Shown: positions 2,892 through 9,883 of the stretch, piece by piece
How the letters are laid out: every line of letters starts with the position of its first letter
How positions within the stretch are numbered: the first letter of the stretch is position 1
Assembly: GCA_900319035.1 (NCBI GenBank)
Contig: ONMU01000001.1
Location: forward strand, 31,659-95,658
From: an uncultured Bacteroidales bacterium
Lineage (GTDB): Bacteria; Bacteroidota; Bacteroidia; Bacteroidales; Paludibacteraceae
Length of the DNA: 64,000 nt
Direction: 5' to 3'
Notes under the pieces: generated by a model
What the model saw: the letters and a program-made list of their open reading frames with translations, nothing else
What the model was told of the DNA's origin: nothing
Databases searched by the model: none
Made by a program: the position numbers and the translations under genes

Positions 2892-2930
2892 TATTACGGA
2901 ATTACGGTATTACGGTATTACGGTATTACC
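2892..2930. repeat. Short-word repeat array (GGTATTAC), holds the glycosyltransferase stop
   Basis: Three to four copies of the 8-base word GGTATTAC. The TAA of the glycosyltransferase gene (complement of 2926-2928) is part of the last copy. Confidence 0.75.
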
Positions 2931-4146
2931 ATTTGGTCTGTTTCTTGGGAACGACGAGCATCCAGAGGTTGATGAGCGGAAGGACGATGTCGAACCAAAG
3001 GATAGAGAACATATTAAACGACTTGAGTCCCAAACGACGTGCGGAAGTATTGAGGATGACCGTTTGCACGATCCACCGCAAGAGGAAAAGACCCAAGGCG
3101 ATGTACAAAGGTACGATGTACGATGTATAAAGGAAATAATATACAAGCGCACCTATCAGCGCGACATAGAACAAACCACGGGTGAGGGGTTCGAACGCCA
3201 AGCGGCACTTCGTGGACGTACGGTATTGTGGCGAGACGGAGAGATGACGGCGTTTTTGCTGCCACCACTCTTTGAAAGTGCGTTTGGACGGCGACCAAGT
3301 GAGACTTTCGCGAGAGATCACCACCGAGGTATTGGTTCGCGTAGCTACATGGTTGACAAAGAGATCATCGTCTCCGGCACGTGTAGTCATCAGATGCGAG
3401 AAACCGCCGGACTCAAAGAAGAGCGATTTCTTGTACGCCAAGTTACGCCCCACGCCCATATACGGATGTCCGCAGAGCGCGGCTCCGAGGTAATGGAGTC
3501 CGTTGAAGAGGGTGTCAAACTGCACAAGGCGGTTGAGATGACTCTTGTGCATGAAATAAGCACCAAAGCCAAGGACTATGTCAGTTGATAGTTGAGAGTT
3601 GACAGTTGATAGTTGGAACCCGCTCATCATCTCAGAGATCCAGTGGGAGGATTCGGGCACACAATCGGCATCGGTGAGCAAGAGATAATCGTATTTAGCT
3701 GCTTTGGCTGCAAGGGTGATTGCCAGTTTCTTGGTTGAACGAACCCGTGCTCCGTATGGCACGAAAGACATCTTAAGACGCGGATCGGAAGTCATGTATC
3801 TCTCCACCACCTCGCGCGTACTATCCTCCGAACCATCATCCACCACGATCACCTCATAGAGGGGATAGTCCTGCGAAAGCAAAGCCTGCAGGTATTGCGA
3901 GAGATTATAGGACTCGTTATGGGCAGCGAGGATGACGGATACTCCTTCGGAGATTTGAGATTTCTCTGCCGCAAGGGCGCGATTAACTCCGTTTTTCAGA
4001 TTTGAGATTTCAGATTTTTTATCTCTACGCATCTTGCGTGCCGGAGCAGCGAGATAGCGGATATAGAAATACATCTGCAGCACAAAGAGCAGCAGAAGCG
4101 ACCCAAGGAGGATATAATCAACTATATGTAAGGAAGAGAAATCCAT
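2926..4146 (-). CDS. Family 2 glycosyltransferase, membrane-anchored
   Basis: Inner-membrane GT2 glycosyltransferase of 406 residues. Seen: an N-terminal membrane helix (8-33); a GT-A fold with VSVILAAHNE (69-78), VVDDGSEDS (101-109) and the metal-binding LLTDAD (156-161); the acceptor-side QQKRRH (296-301, a QxxRW-like motif); and two or three C-terminal helices (324-400). The acceptor and sugar cannot be named. Three stretches look like inserted repeats: residues 44-67 come from the 44-bp dispersed repeat plus flanking ATTTGAGATTT words, 177-188 from AGTTGATA words, and 339-349 from TGTACGA words. The start ATG overlaps the TAA of the PCMD gene (TAATG), so the two are probably coupled. Confidence 0.88.
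   Translation of the reverse strand: MDFSSLHIVDYILLGSLLLLFVLQMYFYIRYLAAPARKMRRDKKSEISNLKNGVNRALAAEKSQISEGVSVILAAHNESYNLSQYLQALLSQDYPLYEVIVVDDGSEDSTREVVERYMTSDPRLKMSFVPYGARVRSTKKLAITLAAKAAKYDYLLLTDADCVPESSHWISEMMSGFQLSTVNSQLSTDIVLGFGAYFMHKSHLNRLVQFDTLFNGLHYLGAALCGHPYMGVGRNLAYKKSLFFESGGFSHLMTTRAGDDDLFVNHVATRTNTSVVISRESLTWSPSKRTFKEWWQQKRRHLSVSPQYRTSTKCRLAFEPLTRGLFYVALIGALVYYFLYTSYIVPLYIALGLFLLRWIVQTVILNTSARRLGLKSFNMFSILWFDIVLPLINLWMLVVPKKQTKW
3583..3616. repeat. In-frame short-word repeat (AGTTGATA)
   Basis: Four copies of an 8-base word (AGTTGATA, AGTTGAGA, GTTGACAG and similar) inside the glycosyltransferase gene. They encode QLST-NSQLST-like residues 177-188, directly behind the catalytic domain core. 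Confidence 0.75.
3953..3996. repeat. 44-bp dispersed repeat, copy 1
   Basis: Identical over 44 bases to 7136-7179. It lies in the glycosyltransferase gene between the membrane helix and the catalytic domain. On the minus strand it is read as AAA AAC GGA GTT, giving KNGVNRALAAEKSQI. Both ends are flanked by ATTTGAGATTT words. Confidence 0.9.
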
Positions 4147-5243
4147 TACGAAACGATTTTGATTTTATAGACATGCGTAGAAGAGCCATCTTCGGCTTTG
4201 ACGGTGATGACCCAAGGTTTGCCGTTCACCTCACCCGGAACGATCGTCATTTCATTACTATCGAGTCTGCGTCCGTTGAAACGTGCGGTTTGAGCTTTGA
4301 TATTCGTCAGACTGCCGATACCGCGAAGAGCAGTAAGTTTAATCGTTTGCGCTTCGCTGTGTGACAGTTTGAGAGTCTGGAGTTTATCGGTATCGGGGTT
4401 AAAATCCTTCCACTCTTTGCTGTTAACCAGCAGTTTATCAATGCGTGAGGAGTAGATGAGCTCTACGTCATCGACATAGAGTGCATTGCCGTCGAACATA
4501 CCATCGTTGGCGCGGAAAGCGGGATAGTTACCGGCAGAGAAGATGACGTTACACATCGTCGGCTTCGCGTCGTTCATATACAGAATAGGCACTTTGATCA
4601 GCGTCCACTCGTCATACTTAGCCCGCGCACGGTGCCATCCTTCCGCAATCTGTTTGGCATGAGTCTCTACCGTACACTCGTTGCCATCAGTCTTCAGGCG
4701 AATGTCCGACTCCTCATTGATGCGCTCCGTAGCCGTACAACCGCCTTTCTTATTCTTATACTCCGTGCCCTTCGAATTACCGGACCACGCATAATAGAGC
4801 AGATGAAAATCCTCTTTCTCCGGCGCAGGTCCCACACGTTTGATCCATACCGCCAAGGTATCGGGACGATATTTCCAAGGGATACCACCCTCGGTACCGG
4901 CAGTAGCTCCGCTGACATTCAAACCCTTGAGGTATTGCCACGGTGTACCCAACGACAGATAACCGGGACCGATAGCTCCGATACCGAGCTTAGGGATACC
5001 GACTGCACGGTCAGTCACATATGCACTATATCCGGTGCGCCCCGGTTTTTGGTACATAAACGTAAACTTAAATCCCGCTTGATTCACATTAGAACCATGC
5101 CAATCGGTCAGCTGTTTATCGCCGTTGAACTTGTCCCCCCAGTTCTCAAAATGCGGATCCGGTAACTGCTGCGCAGCCATCGGAAGTACCGCCATCATCA
5201 GTAACAAAAGCAATGCTTTTGAATAATTATTATTCATTTTCAT
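4146..5243 (-). CDS. PCMD domain protein, secreted
   Basis: Exported protein of about 365 residues with a PCMD domain (putative carbohydrate metabolism domain), common on the surface of gut Bacteroidota. Seen: a signal peptide with a leucine-rich core ending MAAQQ, the entry motif LPDPHFENWG, and the C-terminal beta-rich part ending DGSSTHVYKIKIVS. A ligand-binding or glycan-processing role is only suggested by the family. Three ATG codons (5252, 5243, 5237) could start it; 5243 is my choice, as it leaves a short leader after the -7 box at 5267-5274. The stop is shared with the start of the glycosyltransferase gene. Confidence 0.85.
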   Translation of the reverse strand: MKMNNNYSKALLLLLMMAVLPMAAQQLPDPHFENWGDKFNGDKQLTDWHGSNVNQAGFKFTFMYQKPGRTGYSAYVTDRAVGIPKLGIGAIGPGYLSLGTPWQYLKGLNVSGATAGTEGGIPWKYRPDTLAVWIKRVGPAPEKEDFHLLYYAWSGNSKGTEYKNKKGGCTATERINEESDIRLKTDGNECTVETHAKQIAEGWHRARAKYDEWTLIKVPILYMNDAKPTMCNVIFSAGNYPAFRANDGMFDGNALYVDDVELIYSSRIDKLLVNSKEWKDFNPDTDKLQTLKLSHSEAQTIKLTALRGIGSLTNIKAQTARFNGRRLDSNEMTIVPGEVNGKPWVITVKAEDGSSTHVYKIKIVS

Positions 5244-5266
5244 ACACATCAATCCAAATTAGGCTG

Positions 5267-5306
5267 CAAAGTTACAAAAAAAAAACGACATACACAATAG
5301 TGTATG
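5267..5306 (-). promoter_or_regulatory. Combined terminator and promoter
   Basis: On the minus strand a hairpin (7-bp arms CATACAC/GTGTATG, 5289-5306, loop of 4) is followed by CG and ten T, a terminator for the redox membrane protein gene. The same bases hold a promoter for the PCMD gene: TTG (complement of 5295-5297) sits in the hairpin loop, the T-tract lies in the 20-base spacer, and TAACTTTG is the complement of 5267-5274. Confidence 0.75.
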
Positions 5307-5319
5307 CCACTTTTTTGTG

Positions 5320-6204
5320 TTATTTTATAAAAATACCGGGTGAAGTGATCATTCCAGACTCTGCATTTCGTATAGAATCCCCCATTATCAGCAATCCAAT
5401 AGGCAATACGTTGGTAATGTTCATCATCTGTTTTTGCGGTATTGTACGGATCTCTATCCGGGGTTGATAGATACGATAAAAACGCTCCTTCGCCTCCTCG
5501 TCTTCTACGGCTATACCGACTACTTTATCGACAGCGTGAAACTGCTGGTATTGCTGCACATTCGCAAATGAATTTTGGCAATACGCGCATGAGAAAGAAA
5601 ACAAATATACCACGTATGACGAATCGGCATCAAAGGGATAAACGGCTTTCAATTTCTCCATTGTTTGTGCCCGATCTTCCTCATTCTCCACCAGAGACTG
5701 TTTCGGCAACTCGAACGAGTCCCTCATAGCCAAACCGCAGATGAAAGAAGCTATAGCAGCTATACAAACGCCCAAGGTCAATTTCTGCCAGACATACGTT
5801 TCCGACTTCGGTTGCTCCATCAAAGCAGGAATAGAAATCAGTCCAAACACCGCATTTCGCACAAACGTCATCCACGGACTCGAAGTATAGTATCTGGAAA
5901 GCGCACCAAAACAACCGCAGTCATGTATTCCTTTCGCGACTACTCCATAGGCAAAAACGACACTAACACTTATCAAGAAGATATCTGCCGCCAATGCGCT
6001 ATAACGAGGCTGCACACGCAGCAATAAAGCCGTTCCCAATACGGCTTCCACACAAATAACAAGCGGAGCACCAATACTAAACCAAGGCTGACCGTACAGC
6101 AATAACATATCGGCAAAAGCTTCCGCATCCCAAGCTTTAGCAAAAGCCGAGAGCAAGAACATCAGTCCAAGGATTGTTGTGCTAATATATGATAATACTT
6201 TCAT
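5320..6204 (-). CDS. MauE/DoxX-like membrane protein with thioredoxin-like C-terminus
   Basis: Inner-membrane redox protein of 294 residues, resembling the BT_3928-type DoxX/MauE proteins of Bacteroidota. Seen: about four or five membrane helices in residues 5-160, a cysteine pair in HDCGCFG (94-100), and a soluble C-terminal half with a thioredoxin-like CAYC motif (206-209) preceded by VVYLFSFS. This arrangement suggests passing electrons or disulphides across the membrane, as MauE and related proteins do; the partner is not known. The gene follows a tiny cysteine-rich lipoprotein gene by 48 bases, so the two may work together. A hairpin with a T-tract after the stop ends the unit. Confidence 0.8.
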   Translation of the reverse strand: MKVLSYISTTILGLMFLLSAFAKAWDAEAFADMLLLYGQPWFSIGAPLVICVEAVLGTALLLRVQPRYSALAADIFLISVSVVFAYGVVAKGIHDCGCFGALSRYYTSSPWMTFVRNAVFGLISIPALMEQPKSETYVWQKLTLGVCIAAIASFICGLAMRDSFELPKQSLVENEEDRAQTMEKLKAVYPFDADSSYVVYLFSFSCAYCQNSFANVQQYQQFHAVDKVVGIAVEDEEAKERFYRIYQPRIEIRTIPQKQMMNITNVLPIGLLIMGDSIRNAESGMITSPGIFIK

Positions 6205-6251
6205 AACTAAAAAAAGGTCACCCTAAAAAGAGTGACCTGTGTTCCACAAGA

Positions 6252-6467
6252 TTACTTCTTGCAGGACCATCTCTGCCAGCTTGCACCCTGACTCTTAGCA
6301 GTTGACTCCAAGAGATCCTCGATGTCACTGCAAGTTTTGTACTGGCTGTCAGTTTTGATTTTCTGCTCAACACCAGTTTTTGCTTCAGTACATGTACAAG
6401 TTTTCTTGCAAGAAGAGAACGAGAGAGCTGCAATAGCAACTGCTGCTACAAAGAATACTTTTTTCAT
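6252..6467 (-). CDS. Small cysteine-rich lipoprotein
   Basis: A 71-residue protein of unknown function. Seen: a lipoprotein signal (MKKVFFVAAVAIAALSFSSC, lipobox Cys20) and five further cysteines in the short mature part (CTC, TCSD, SCKK). It has its own promoter (boxes at 6519-6526 and 6547-6550) and precedes the MauE/DoxX-like gene. The cysteines could be substrates or partners of that redox protein, which is an inference from position only. An overlapping frame (6218-6439) lacks a signal and was not chosen. Confidence 0.8.
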   Translation of the reverse strand: MKKVFFVAAVAIAALSFSSCKKTCTCTEAKTGVEQKIKTDSQYKTCSDIEDLLESTAKSQGASWQRWSCKK

Positions 6468-6518
6468 CGTAATTATAAAATTAAGTTAATAAAAATGTGT
6501 TTGTTATAAAATCGGCTG

Positions 6519-6550
6519 CAAAGGTACAACCTTTTTTTCATATATCCAAA
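6519..6550 (-). promoter_or_regulatory. Promoter of the small lipoprotein gene
   Basis: Bacteroidetes-type promoter on the minus strand: TTTG (complement of 6547-6550), 20-base spacer, TACCTTTG (complement of 6519-6526). It leads into the lipoprotein and MauE/DoxX genes. Confidence 0.8.
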
Positions 6551-6566
6551 TATTTTTGCAAAAATT

Positions 6567-7184
6567 TTATATTTTTTTGCGATTTTTTAACATTTCGTAT
6601 ACTTTTTGCACGGGAAAGCCCATCACATTGAAGTACGAACCGCGTATTTCGGTGCAAGCCACATAGCCGATCCATTCCTGTACTCCATAAGCACCGGCTT
6701 TGTCAAAGGGACGGTATTTGGAGACATAATAGCGGATCTCTTCATCGGAGAGTTCAGCAAAAGTAACATCGGTCTTGTCCACTATTGTCTCCATCTCTCT
6801 CCCCTTTTGGGCAAAGGTGACAGCGGTGAAGACCTGATGCGTTTTGCCGCTCAGGGCACGGAGCATCGCTACCGCTTCGGACTCGTCATGAGGTTTGCCG
6901 AGCATGTGTCCGTCTGCCCAGACGATGGTGTCTGCGGTTATCAGGAGTTGATCGGGTCGGAGGTTCGGCTCGTACGCACGTGCCTTCGCACGCGAGATAT
7001 AATAAGGTATATCACCGCCTTGCAGGTCATTCGGAAAGGACTCGTCGGCATCGATGGAGATAGCTGTGAAGGGGATATCTAAACCTTCAAGCAGCGCACG
7101 CCTTCTTGGCGATGCGCTGCCCAGCAGTATATCATATTTGAGATTTCTCTGCCGCAAGGGCGCGATTAACTCCGTTTTTGACAT
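6567..7184 (-). CDS. maf: Maf-like nucleotide pyrophosphatase
   Basis: House-cleaning nucleoside triphosphate pyrophosphatase (Maf/YhdE type; usual substrates dTTP and UTP), 205 residues, cytoplasmic. Seen: the signature LGSASPRRRALLEGL (21-35), the substrate-specificity block DADESF (45-50), and the later ADTIVWADGHMLGKP and KYRPFDKAGAYGVQEWIG motifs. Residues 1-16 do not belong to the family core; they and the ATG are encoded by the 44-bp dispersed repeat (7136-7179) and its flank. The repeat therefore supplies the start of this gene. The stop of parC lies just upstream in the same repeat tract, so the two are probably coupled. Confidence 0.9.
   Translation of the reverse strand: MSKTELIAPLRQRNLKYDILLGSASPRRRALLEGLDIPFTAISIDADESFPNDLQGGDIPYYISRAKARAYEPNLRPDQLLITADTIVWADGHMLGKPHDESEAVAMLRALSGKTHQVFTAVTFAQKGREMETIVDKTDVTFAELSDEEIRYYVSKYRPFDKAGAYGVQEWIGYVACTEIRGSYFNVMGFPVQKVYEMLKNRKKI
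7136..7179. repeat. 44-bp dispersed repeat, copy 2
   Basis: Identical to 3953-3996. Here it forms the first codons of maf and is read one base out of phase with copy 1 (TCA AAA ACG GAG TTA, giving SKTELIAPLRQRNLK). Flanking ATTTGAGATTT words carry both the parC stop codon and the maf ATG. Confidence 0.9.
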
Positions 7185-7198
7185 TTGAGATTTGAGAT

Positions 7199-9883
7199 TT
7201 AGAAGAGATCTAATTGGGTATCTTTGGGTTTCTCGATCGTCATTGTAACGCCGTCTATGTCCAGAGAGGTCGGTTGGGCTGGTTCGGGAGATGCCGGAGT
7301 GTCCAGAGAATCCGGAGATTCTGGAGATTCTGGAGATTCCGGGGTATCGAAATCGTCATCATTCCCCCTTCCGTCTAAGGTTTCCCCCGGTTCATCGGGG
7401 GACACCTCAGGCTCGGGAGTGATGTCTTCGATGGATGCTATCTCGAGGGTAGAGACACGTTTGCCTTTTGCCTTCGCAGATTTCTCGTCGATGAAGTCCT
7501 CCATAAGGATGTCGAGTACCGGTTTGGACTCATCTGCAAAGTGAATACGGAAAGTAGCCTCAGCCCGATCGGAGAGCACTGCGATACGGGAGTCTTTGTC
7601 CTCGCCAAGCATGGATTGCAGCTTCGCATTCGCATCGTCCAAACGGAACCGTTTACCGTAATAATACTTGAGTTCGCCGTTCCACTGGATAAGACTCCAT
7701 ACTTTCTCGGTATCGAGTTTCTCTATACGGAGGATGTTATCCTCAAAATGGGCGGTGAGATCGAAAGTGGTGGTATAATAGGTACCATCGTTATTGATGA
7801 CGAGGATGCGGTCTTCGTCCCAGAACTCACCCAGATAGACTCCGTGCTCGTCATAATTGACACGCAGCACATCGGGATCGAACCACACCTTACGTCCGCC
7901 GAGGGTCGAATGACCTTTCTGCTTGAGGGTGATGGACTTGACTTCAAATTTCGTGAGGACGTTTCCTCGTGCCGTACGGGACTTGACAGCCAGTTCGGAG
8001 AGATCTTTGCAGACCTCCAGTTTCTTGAGATGCAAAGCCGGTTTGAGTGTCACACGGATGATCTCCGCCTCGCCGTTGGGGTTAGCGGTGAAATAGATGA
8101 TCTTCGAACCCGGGGTACCTTGCGTGAGATCGTATTCCTTGTCGCGCGCTACGCCGGTGACGTTGAAACGCTTCATGAAATACGTGCCTTTCTTACCGTC
8201 ACGATAGACCACATTATAGACCGTGCGGTCATCGCCGCGCTGGAAGACAGCTATATGCAGGATGTCGGTACCGATGAACAGTTTCTCGGCTACCTTGATG
8301 ATCTTGTATTTACCGTCCTTATGGAAGACGATGAGGTCATCGATATCGGAGCAATCGAAAAGGTATTCGTCCTTCTTGAGGCTCGTACCGATGAAGCCTT
8401 CCTCACGGTTGATATAGAGTTTCTCGTTGTTCTCAACGACCGCTTTGACGTTGATAGCGCCGAAGTTACGCACCTCGGTGCGACGCGGCCACGCATCGCC
8501 GTATTTGGCTTTGAGCATCTCAAACCAAGCGATGGTATAATCCGTGAGGTGGTTGAGGTTCTTGACGCAAGCTTTGATCTTCTTCTCCAAGTCCTTCATC
8601 AGTTCGTCCGCCTTCTTGGAGTCGAACTTGGTGATTCGAATCATGCGGATCTCGAAGAGTTTCTCTATATCTTCGGTGCGCACCTCGCGGATGAGTTGCG
8701 GCTTGAAAGGCGTGAGGGCATTGTCCACAAACTCAATGAGTTTCTCCTTGTTCGGCGCGTTCTCGTAACCCTCCTGCTTATAGATGCGGTTCTCGATGAA
8801 GATCTTCTCCAAAGAGGTATAGAAATACTTCTCTTCGAGTTCGGATTTCTCGATCTCGAGTTCCCATTTGAGGAGTGCTTTGGTGTTGTCGCAGGACAGT
8901 TTGAGGAGGTTAGAGACGGATGTAAAGATCGGCTTGCGGTTCTCCACCACACAGCAGTTCGGGGAGATATTTACCTCGCAATCGGTGAAAGCATAGAGCG
9001 CATCGATCGCTTTGTCAGAGGACGAACCCGGTGCGAGCTGCACTACTATACGGGCAGTGTCCGCCGTGAAATCATCGATCTTCTTGATCTTGATCTTCCC
9101 TTTCTGGTTCGCCTTGAGGATCGTCTCGATGATTTTCGAGGTGGTAGTACCGTAAGGTATCTCCGTGATGATCAGGGTCTTGTTGTCGTCCGCCTTTTGA
9201 ATACGGGCACGAATCTTCACTACTCCACCACGCTCACCATCGTTGTAACGGGTGACATCGATGACTCCGCCTGTGGGGAAATCGGGATATAAGGAAAACT
9301 CCTGATTGCGGAGGTACGCCAAAGAGGCGTCGCACAACTCGTTGAAGTTATGAGGCAAGATCTTGGAGTTCAGACCGACCGCGATACCCTCCACACCTTG
9401 GGCAAGGAGCAGCGGGAACTTAACCGGCAGATGAATAGGCTCGTTCTTACGACCGTCGTAGGACTTCATCCACTCGGTGGTCTTGGCATTGAAGACCGTC
9501 TCCAGCGCGAACTTGGAGAGACGCGCCTCAATATAACGAGGAGCCGCAGCTCCATCGCCTGTGAGGACGTTTCCCCAGTTACCTTGACAGTCAATGAGCA
9601 GATCTTTCTGGCCGAGCTGGACGAGTGCGTCTCCGATAGAGGCATCGCCGTGCGGGTGGTATTGCATGGTCTGACCGACGATGTTCGCCACCTTGTTGTA
9701 CTTACCGTCATCCACCTGCTTCATAGCATGCAGAATACGGCGCTGCACGGGTTTGAGGCCATCCTCAACCGCGGGCACAGCACGCTCTAATATCACATAC
9801 GAGGCATAATCGAGGAACCAGTCCTGATACATACCCGTCAAGTGATACTTCACAGCATCATTGAAACCACCCTGACCTGCCAT
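7199..9883 (-). CDS. parC: DNA topoisomerase IV / gyrase-type subunit A
   Basis: DNA-breaking subunit of a type IIA topoisomerase, 894 residues. Seen: the winged-helix start GMYQDWFLDYASYVILERAV, the quinolone-region block HPHGDASIGDALV (76-88), and the catalytic tyrosine in APRYIEARL (Tyr117). The C-terminal part is shorter and less regular than in GyrA, so ParC is the better name. The last 70 residues are acidic and low-complexity, encoded partly by a tandem GATTCTGGA word array (7301-7343) and by a segment resembling the sequence before tRNA-Arg (7364-7411). The stop codon lies in an ATTTGAGATTT repeat shared with the start of maf. Confidence 0.93.
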   Translation of the reverse strand: MAGQGGFNDAVKYHLTGMYQDWFLDYASYVILERAVPAVEDGLKPVQRRILHAMKQVDDGKYNKVANIVGQTMQYHPHGDASIGDALVQLGQKDLLIDCQGNWGNVLTGDGAAAPRYIEARLSKFALETVFNAKTTEWMKSYDGRKNEPIHLPVKFPLLLAQGVEGIAVGLNSKILPHNFNELCDASLAYLRNQEFSLYPDFPTGGVIDVTRYNDGERGGVVKIRARIQKADDNKTLIITEIPYGTTTSKIIETILKANQKGKIKIKKIDDFTADTARIVVQLAPGSSSDKAIDALYAFTDCEVNISPNCCVVENRKPIFTSVSNLLKLSCDNTKALLKWELEIEKSELEEKYFYTSLEKIFIENRIYKQEGYENAPNKEKLIEFVDNALTPFKPQLIREVRTEDIEKLFEIRMIRITKFDSKKADELMKDLEKKIKACVKNLNHLTDYTIAWFEMLKAKYGDAWPRRTEVRNFGAINVKAVVENNEKLYINREEGFIGTSLKKDEYLFDCSDIDDLIVFHKDGKYKIIKVAEKLFIGTDILHIAVFQRGDDRTVYNVVYRDGKKGTYFMKRFNVTGVARDKEYDLTQGTPGSKIIYFTANPNGEAEIIRVTLKPALHLKKLEVCKDLSELAVKSRTARGNVLTKFEVKSITLKQKGHSTLGGRKVWFDPDVLRVNYDEHGVYLGEFWDEDRILVINNDGTYYTTTFDLTAHFEDNILRIEKLDTEKVWSLIQWNGELKYYYGKRFRLDDANAKLQSMLGEDKDSRIAVLSDRAEATFRIHFADESKPVLDILMEDFIDEKSAKAKGKRVSTLEIASIEDITPEPEVSPDEPGETLDGRGNDDDFDTPESPESPESPDSLDTPASPEPAQPTSLDIDGVTMTIEKPKDTQLDLF
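7301..7343. repeat. In-frame tandem repeat in the parC tail (GATTCTGGA)
   Basis: Four near-identical copies of a 9-base word, read on the minus strand as repeated Ser-Pro-Glu units near the ParC C-terminus. Confidence 0.8.
7364..7411. repeat. Dispersed repeat similar to 37431-37478
   Basis: About 48 bases built as CCCCTTCCG, a short variable part, then GGTTTCCCC, a small hairpin loop, CGGGG and GACACCTC. The same order appears before tRNA-Arg at 37431-37478. In parC it encodes PEVSPDEPGET-like residues. Confidence 0.55.

What the first reader, a model, noticed from the sequence alone, without database searches (positions are those of the whole stretch)
3953..7179. A 44-bp repeat sits in two genes and is translated in two different frames
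3953-3996 (glycosyltransferase) and 7136-7179 (maf) are identical. In the first it reads KNGVNRALAAEKSQI; in the second it is shifted by one base, reads SKTELIAPLRQRNLK, and supplies the gene's first codons. Both are flanked by ATTTGAGATTT words. This is the behaviour of a gene-invading mobile mini-element, as known for Rickettsia palindromic elements, but I know of no such family in Bacteroidales.
Basis: partly seen in the sequence, partly recalled or inferred. Interest (0 to 1): 0.85.

Follow-up and report, generated by a model that had tools for sequence, protein, structure and literature searches.

The report
Hairpin mini-elements invading gene starts
A tiny DNA hairpin, a few dozen bases long, has spread through the genes of one genus of gut bacteria, often landing right after the start codon and adding a few amino acids; its ends are fixed but the hairpin's own sequence is almost free to vary.

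Summary
The repeat is real and not local. The identical 44 bp are a 33-bp core (3964-3996, 7147-7179, minus strand) plus part of a flanking heptamer array. The window's genome holds five near-copies. The core is one lineage of a larger family, TAATCGT-[stem-loop of almost free sequence]-TAAGAA: 27 matches in this genome against 1 control match, 25 of 27 with a flush stem against 1.7 in shuffles; 2320 against 276 control matches in 178 genus genomes, 320 against 795 in 180 genomes of 32 other genera. Three occupied/empty site pairs link the window to a close relative; in methylmalonyl-CoA mutase a clean 33-bp in-frame insertion leaves GAA on both sides. One subfamily sits directly after start codons (59 of 87 independent sites). 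Stems covary. Most likely a REP-like hairpin element moved in trans as single-stranded DNA, perhaps by an RAYT-type HUH enzyme; that link is only correlative, and no element was found beside 30 RAYT loci.

The parts
3964..3996 (-). 33-bp core, copy 1 (class a): AAAAACGGAGTTAATCGCGCCCTTGCGGCAGAG on the minus strand, in frame inside the glycosyltransferase gene
   Evidence: core absent at this site in relative G126/L179
7147..7179 (-). 33-bp core, copy 2, identical, other reading frame, codons 2-13 of maf (parts of codons 2 and 13)
   Evidence: core absent at this site in G126/L179; of 30 maf loci printed, the window's own included, only the window's own has it
3968..3978 (-). hairpin 2 of copy 1, GCC-CTTGC-GGC
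   Evidence: covariation over 128 distinct elements
7151..7161 (-). hairpin 2 of copy 2
3985..3993 (-). hairpin 1 of copy 1, AAC-GGA-GTT (GNA triloop)
   Evidence: weaker support than hairpin 2, a competing stem is predicted for other copies
7168..7176 (-). hairpin 1 of copy 2
   Evidence: same reservation
3950..3963 (-). heptamer array on one side of copy 1 (GAGATTTGAGATTT on +)
3997..4017 (-). heptamer array on the other side of copy 1
   Evidence: in G126 the same site holds an array of another heptamer (AAATGAC/AAATGGT) and no core
7136..7146 (-). heptamer array on one side of copy 2
7180..7200 (-). heptamer array on the other side of copy 2; its variant unit CAAATGT supplies the ATG of maf
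3578..3615 (-). heptamer array (AACTATC type) in the same glycosyltransferase gene without a core; G126 carries a core here
2926..4146 (-). host gene 1, glycosyltransferase family 2
6567..7184 (-). host gene 2, maf

Best explanation
The repeat is a copy of a non-autonomous hairpin mini-element found in one genus (Paludibacteraceae by the titles of related records). General form: conserved feet TAATCGT and TAAGAA around a stem-loop whose sequence is nearly free, sometimes with a second stem-loop just 5' of TAATCGT. The element enters at a GAA and leaves GAA on both sides; tandem arrays look like re-insertion at the terminal GAA. The abundant 33-bp lineage (AAAAACGnAGTTAATCGYGCC-N5-GGCnnAG) keeps reading frame and is open in two sense and two antisense frames (read from the sequence), so it can be tolerated in proteins; its class b is found mostly directly after ATG. 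The window's two copies belong to class a (GCGCC..GGCAGAG), most of whose sites lie in heptamer arrays. Shown: dispersal, occupied/empty sites, net 33 bp in the mutase pair, fixed feet, free but paired stem, genus restriction in what was searched. Inferred: that the form recognised is folded single-stranded DNA, cut and joined by an enzyme supplied in trans (an RAYT-type Y1 HUH protein is the leading candidate), and that class a also spreads by recombination between arrays. I put the mobile hairpin element at about 0.9 and the ssDNA HUH route at about 0.45.
For: Copies: 5 in own genome; 40 of 358 family genomes, 1 of 33 genera; 100 of 178 genus genomes; 138 of 178; 12 in own, up to 25; 3 of 393 order genomes, all own genus, 1 of 206 genera. 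General form; 25 of 27 own-genome matches have a flush stem of 3 or more pairs against shuffle mean 1.7, maximum 6 in 1000 shuffles; 0 of 15 listed matches in three other genera; 2320 matches against 276 control in 178 genus genomes; 320 against 795 in 180 genomes of other genera. Occupied/empty: three pairs with G126; methylmalonyl-CoA mutase, GTAGAG-GAA-[element]-GAA-GTC against GTAGAG-GAA-GTC, 11 extra residues, antisense, in frame. Covariation: (97.5% of cells paired, 31 double-change cells against 6.5 in shuffles; 0 of 500 shuffles reach any of the five measures). In-situ maintenance: carA loci L258/L259/L266 with three loops and one stem, L005/L184/L254 with GCC/GGC and ACC/GGT stems. 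HUH candidate: 46 of 50 genomes with 20 or more matches carry a long RAYT-like protein against 10 of 20 with 0 or 1 (Fisher p 2.4e-4).
Against: No element beside the RAYT gene in 30 loci with flanks of up to 1.5 kb (one stemless lax match). G075, with 22 matches and 96% completeness, has no RAYT hit; G098, G169 and G173 have 6-10 RAYT hits and at most one element match. Genome completeness and phylogeny confound the association, and RAYT-like hits also occur, weakly except one, in 8 of 10 genomes outside the genus. Class b clusters at start codons far more than a bare GAA target predicts, which points to function or selection. Class a in arrays is mostly flanked by AAA or AAT rather than GAA, and GAA(R) stands directly before only 42 of 254 units. 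The shuffles do not preserve relatedness.
Confidence: 0.6

Rival explanations
1. Functional 5' RNA element: a hairpin near the 5' end of mRNAs and some tRNA precursors that affects initiation, translation or stability; copies spread because they are useful.
For: 59 of 87 independent class b sites directly follow a start codon (31 of 670 GAAA sites in the window are ATGAAA opening an ORF) and 10 lie just after a TAnnTTTG-type promoter. Two copies, L148 and L263, lie just upstream of tRNA-Gln and tRNA-Ser genes on the same strand. Stem kept at orthologous sites while loops change. The stem begins 22 nt from the A of the ATG.
Against: Antisense in-frame copies in methylmalonyl-CoA mutase and in another ORF by a simple ORF test (L210); antisense copies in tRNA/tmRNA 3'-end duplicates; many units outside coding starts and in heptamer arrays; the ten host proteins tested share no obvious theme. 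Does not explain copying.
Confidence: 0.3
2. Class a copies, including the window's two, moved by ectopic recombination or gene conversion between heptamer arrays, not by insertion.
For: 27 of 43 class a sites lie in heptamer arrays, in the same phase in the array cases inspected by eye. In G000 all four array copies have AAATCTC-type flanks and in G075 the 13 contexts printed have CCAATCA-type flanks. G075 lacks a RAYT hit.
Against: Class a also occurs outside arrays, e.g. polA and a C-terminal site, and flanking heptamers differ between genomes and even within one gene.
Confidence: 0.35
3. Single local duplication between two neighbouring genes.
For: Both copies lie within 3.2 kb and are identical.
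Against: A third exact copy on contig C4 and a fourth with one mismatch on C26; genus-wide family.
Confidence: 0.01
4. Sequence-templated repair at hairpins (quasi-palindrome correction) keeps stems perfect without selection for structure.
For: Perfect stems with unrelated sequences and short loops are what templated correction yields (established knowledge, not tested here).
Against: Does not explain fixed feet, copy number or genus restriction; many stems keep a TCGA..GAGA form with tandem G.A mismatches.
Confidence: 0.15

Closest known systems
REP elements with RAYT/TnpAREP (GTAG type; REPINs, BIMEs)
   Same: Small hairpin with a conserved unpaired foot, tens of copies, clusters and tandem arrays, occasional in-gene copies; RAYT-like proteins occur in the genus.
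   Different: Feet are TAATCGT and TAAGAA, not GTAG; stem sequence nearly free within one genome; no element found beside 30 RAYT loci; strong start-codon preference of one lineage.
CGTC-tagged REPs (including Rickettsia RPE-4/RPE-6, per PMC3733652)
   Same: Small tagged hairpins, no dedicated transposase known, found inside ORFs, reported from Bacteroidetes among other phyla.
   Different: Tag, stem length of 8-9 bp and CCA-like tail do not fit; here many stems have only 3-5 pairs and the tail is AAGAA.
Rickettsia palindromic elements (RPE)
   Same: In-frame insertions into conserved proteins; also found in RNA genes such as tmRNA per PMC2229807.
   Different: 105-146 bp with terminal inverted repeats; here 33 bp, no terminal inverted repeat, many at the N-terminus.
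IS200/IS605 ends and palindrome-associated derivatives
   Same: Foot sequence next to a hairpin that can guide cleavage (PMC8266576 passages); insertion beside a short fixed target (recalled).
   Different: No left/right pair of subterminal hairpins seen, no tnpA within the element.
TAACTGA heptamer direct repeats (PMC4679880)
   Same: Heptamer arrays, some in Bacteroidetes, many near start codons in one genome.
   Different: A parallel for the flanking arrays only; no hairpin core.

Membership tests
RAYT-associated REP (GTAG) | Small hairpin with conserved unpaired foot, many copies | tested here: met
RAYT-associated REP (GTAG) | GTAG tetranucleotide at the foot of the stem | tested here: not met
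   foot is TAATCGT
RAYT-associated REP (GTAG) | Elements flank the RAYT gene | tested here: not met
   0 of 30 RAYT loci with up to 1.5 kb flanks, one stemless lax match
RAYT-associated REP (GTAG) | Genome encodes an RAYT | tested here: inconclusive
   46 of 50 high-copy, 10 of 20 low-copy genomes; 4 high-copy genomes without
RAYT-associated REP (GTAG) | Enzyme binds and cleaves the ssDNA hairpin | not testable with these tools
   needs biochemistry
CGTC REP | CGTC tag, 8-9 bp stem, CCA-like tail | tested here: not met
   feature list from PMC3733652 passages; own feet and stems
Rickettsia palindromic element (RPE) | In-frame insertions in conserved protein genes | tested here: met
Rickettsia palindromic element (RPE) | 105-146 bp with terminal inverted repeats | tested here: not met
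   net insertion 33 bp, ends not inverted repeats; feature from PMC2229807
IS200/IS605-like non-autonomous element | Insertion next to a fixed short target without long target duplication | tested here: inconclusive
   GAA on both sides in the mutase pair; GAA(R) directly before 42 of 254 units, many of the others have hairpin 1 letters there
Known Rfam RNA family | Match to a curated model at its gathering score | tested here: not met
   15 loci: only five tRNAs reached their gathering score; sub-threshold matches near the element are chance-level

The most novel reading that the evidence does not exclude
A mobile element recognised by shape, not sequence: only the two feet are fixed while the stem drifts freely under pairing, and one lineage has specialised to land directly after start codons, giving dozens of unrelated genes, housekeeping ones included, an 11-residue leader and an mRNA hairpin that is then maintained in place.
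Probability: 0.35. Interest if true: 0.92.

Novelty: new variant of a known kind. Interest (0 to 1): 0.78.

Why it matters
It adds a genus-wide case of very small DNA elements written into proteins, housekeeping ones included, outside the Rickettsiales. Because feet are fixed and stems vary, and because occupied and empty sites exist at short evolutionary distance, it makes a long-standing question testable: how REP-like elements without their own transposase move, and whether the hairpin is recognised as DNA or kept as RNA. It also shows N-termini that gene callers would take as native.

Tried and rejected
Single local duplication: rejected. Y1 transposase by Pfam PF01797: 48 of 178 genus genomes over the cut-off, 68 with any match; weak link with copy number (medians 15 and 9, p 0.008) and 23 of 50 high-copy genomes without a match; profile A2 lowered that to 4 of 50. 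Long internal variant GTGCCCAANATGGGCAAAG as a possible parent: 5 of 178 genomes. Rfam: nothing at gathering score but tRNAs. Viral carrier: only one 51.5-kb IMG/VR contig matched two exact patterns, not pursued. Folding of single sequences gives weak energies, and for the window's class a sequence no better than shuffles as DNA or RNA, so structure rests on covariation, not on energy. RNAalifold returned hairpin 2 only; hairpin 1 as AAC-GNA-GTT competes with ACGA..TCGT, and its 23 double changes may be largely one inherited subfamily. In the slid-structure control the number of pairs with a double change ties with one slide (5 and 5); cells paired (97.5% against at most 46.4%) and double-change cells (31 against at most 11) do not. 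Literature: the titles and abstract openings listed by five searches of the held open-access library (one search returned no paper) showed no description of this family; a letter search for the two feet listed unrelated papers. Subscription literature is not covered.

Limits on counts: the 130 sites come from fixed-pattern searches and from the listed part, so class frequencies are not a random sample, and labels come from a simple ORF, promoter and periodicity test. One search dropped 3 of 195 elements for short flanks (L098, L100, L148), at a stricter filter, dropped 11. One search used the 128 distinct sequences among 175 33-bp forms; 20 forms with other loop lengths were left out. Twenty regions were chosen because their 5' stem letters were unusual, which raises the number of compensatory cases; the 3' half was not part of the search. 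The start-codon yardstick (31 of 670) comes from the window only. In one search the 83 genus strings and 15 outside strings were copied by hand from the capped listing (outside: genera g2-g4 only); the counts summed were copied by hand from its table.
Full report
1. Check. The 44-bp identity is exact and maximal. Reading the two places together with three further copies in the same genome splits it into a 33-bp core and 11 bp of heptamer array. Over a 30-bp pattern three copies are exact, one has one mismatch and one has three. They lie in the glycosyltransferase, at the start of maf, between the end of a murE-like and the start of an mraY-like gene (named from the sequence, not tested), inside an array on contig C26, and at an N-terminus MKNGVNRALAAKK on C39. 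A local duplication is excluded.

2. Occupied and empty sites. In the close relative G126 (its contig C37 has the length of L179's contig from isolate RUG715 and the same core place) the glycosyltransferase site carries a heptamer array of another motif and no core, the maf site carries an array and no core, and a third site in the glycosyltransferase carries a core where the window has only array (first seen). The G126 reading frames stay open across these places. Of 61 genus genomes searched, 57 have maf; of the 30 loci printed (the window's own included) only the window's own has the core, 11 start maf at an ATG overlapping the upstream stop codon, and L212, L220 and L228 hold other repeat arrays there by eye. 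A cleaner case is methylmalonyl-CoA mutase: L110 has GTAGAGGAAGTC, L067 and L309 have GTAGAG-GAA-[30 nt]-GAA-GTC, in frame and antisense to the gene; an occupied copy (L206) matches the C-terminal domain model TIGR00640 at 122 bits with about 11 extra residues.

3. Distribution. The core pattern occurs in 40 of 358 family genomes, all in one of 33 genera; the half-pattern in 100 of 178 genus genomes, with three matches in the control columns that I saw; a covariance model in 138 of 178 and, in a sample of 393 genomes of the order, in three, all of that genus.

4. What is conserved. In 128 distinct 33-bp forms the stem GCC-N5-GGC is paired in 99.5% of cells, with double changes at all three pairs (ACC/GGT, GGC/GCC, GCT/AGC); the two-helix structure as a whole exceeds all 500 shuffles on all five measures (the shuffles do not keep relatedness). 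Forms with other loop lengths show TCC/GGA, GCCC/GGGC and GCCCC/GGGGC. At orthologous sites the stem stays while the loop changes: carA (L258, L259, L266; loops AAAGT, ACATT, CAAGT), and L005/L184/L254 where one has ACC/GGT. The encoded residues change with it (A..A to T..V), so the constraint is on nucleic acid.

5. The wider family. Weak model matches showed that the stem can be almost anything. The pattern TAATCGT-N(6-22)-TAAGAA occurs 27 times in the window's genome against one control match and up to 53 times in a genus genome. Summed from that table: 2320 matches against 276 control matches in 178 genus genomes, and 320 against 795 in 180 genomes of the 32 other genera, none above 8. 25 of 27 own-genome matches have a flush stem of at least 3 pairs (shuffle mean 1.7, maximum 6 in 1000), as do 61 of 83 distinct genus strings copied from the listing (72 with at least 2), and 0 of 15 listed matches from genera g2-g4. 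Many stems have the form TCGA..GAGA with tandem G.A mismatches and a three-base loop. A second stem-loop of 4 or more exact pairs abuts TAATCGT in 13 of 27 (159 of 1080 random places). Tandem arrays hp-TAAGAAATAATCGT-hp occur. A scan of the window for looser forms of the feet found, as stem-loop members, only the two cores.

6. Where it sits. Of 192 elements of the 33-bp lineage with flanks, 130 sites are independent. Class b (GGC-TAAG, AAAG and others): 59 of 87 directly after a start codon, 10 just after a promoter-like sequence. Class a (GGC-AGAG), to which the window belongs: 27 of 43 in heptamer arrays, 22 inside ORFs in sense. Two copies stand just upstream of tRNA genes. Hosts confirmed by Pfam: carbamoyl-phosphate synthase small chain, AIR carboxylase, adenylosuccinate synthetase, DNA polymerase I, dihydrodipicolinate reductase, rubrerythrin, a cytidylyltransferase; one tested host had no match. 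In the window's genome five tRNA genes and tmRNA are followed by a partial second copy of their 3' end with an element of the wider family at the T-loop, antisense.

7. Mechanism. Fixed feet, free paired stem, insertion beside GAA, arrays that look like re-insertion, and no coding capacity fit a hairpin moved as single-stranded DNA by an enzyme in trans. The genus encodes long RAYT-like proteins (PF01797 21.4 and NF047646 32.2 bits, both below cut-off for the window genome's copy; HUH and tyrosine motifs recognised from memory). They occur in 46 of 50 genomes with 20 or more matches, in 10 of 20 with none or one, and, weakly except one, in 8 of 10 outside the genus (Fisher p 2.4e-4). Against this, none of the 30 RAYT loci fetched has an element nearby and G075 has no RAYT hit. 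I therefore name the RAYT route as leading but unproved.

8. Comparison. Papers seen in passages only: PMC3733652 (GTAG and CGTC REPs), PMC8266576 (TnpAREP recognition), PMC2229807 (RPE), PMC4679880 (heptamers); search listings otherwise. The element works like a REP and like an RPE but fails a defining feature of each.

Noticed in passing
L426, L437, L439, L441, L443, L447 (own genome): tRNA-Glu, -Thr, -Ser, -Gln, -Lys and tmRNA are each followed by a partial second copy of their own 3' end with a hairpin element at the T-loop; in several an inverted partial copy seems to precede it. Origin unexplained.
   Followed up: partly
3950-4017, 3578-3615, 7136-7200 and L179, L066, L101: Heptamer arrays stay at the same gene position between species while the heptamer itself changes, as if turned over by concerted evolution.
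   Followed up: partly
L455:1065-2096, L457:1050-2297, L462:1054-2121: RAYT-like proteins of about 340-420 aa with a conserved C-terminal extension of unknown function; up to 10 hits in one genome (G098).
   Followed up: partly
L453, L454 (IMGVR_UViG_3300038345_000065): A 51.5-kb putative viral contig carries several units in near-identical repeats beside ORFs that look like methyltransferases (from the sequence, not tested).
   Followed up: no
L068, L100, L104, L122, L129, L133 (G075): One genome has 13 class a matches, those printed in CCAATCA-type arrays, and no detected RAYT.
   Followed up: partly
L016, L185, L203, L205: A longer N-terminal variant with a second hairpin AAAGAAA..TTTCTTT; its left part occurs in 5 of 178 genomes.
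   Followed up: partly
706-999: A minus-strand ORF reads NLQIFKSSNLQIRKS, another coding repeat like those around the cores.
   Followed up: no
L084, L067, L011: The mutase fragment with the element occurs twice in one contig and near contig ends, suggesting a repeated locus.
   Followed up: no
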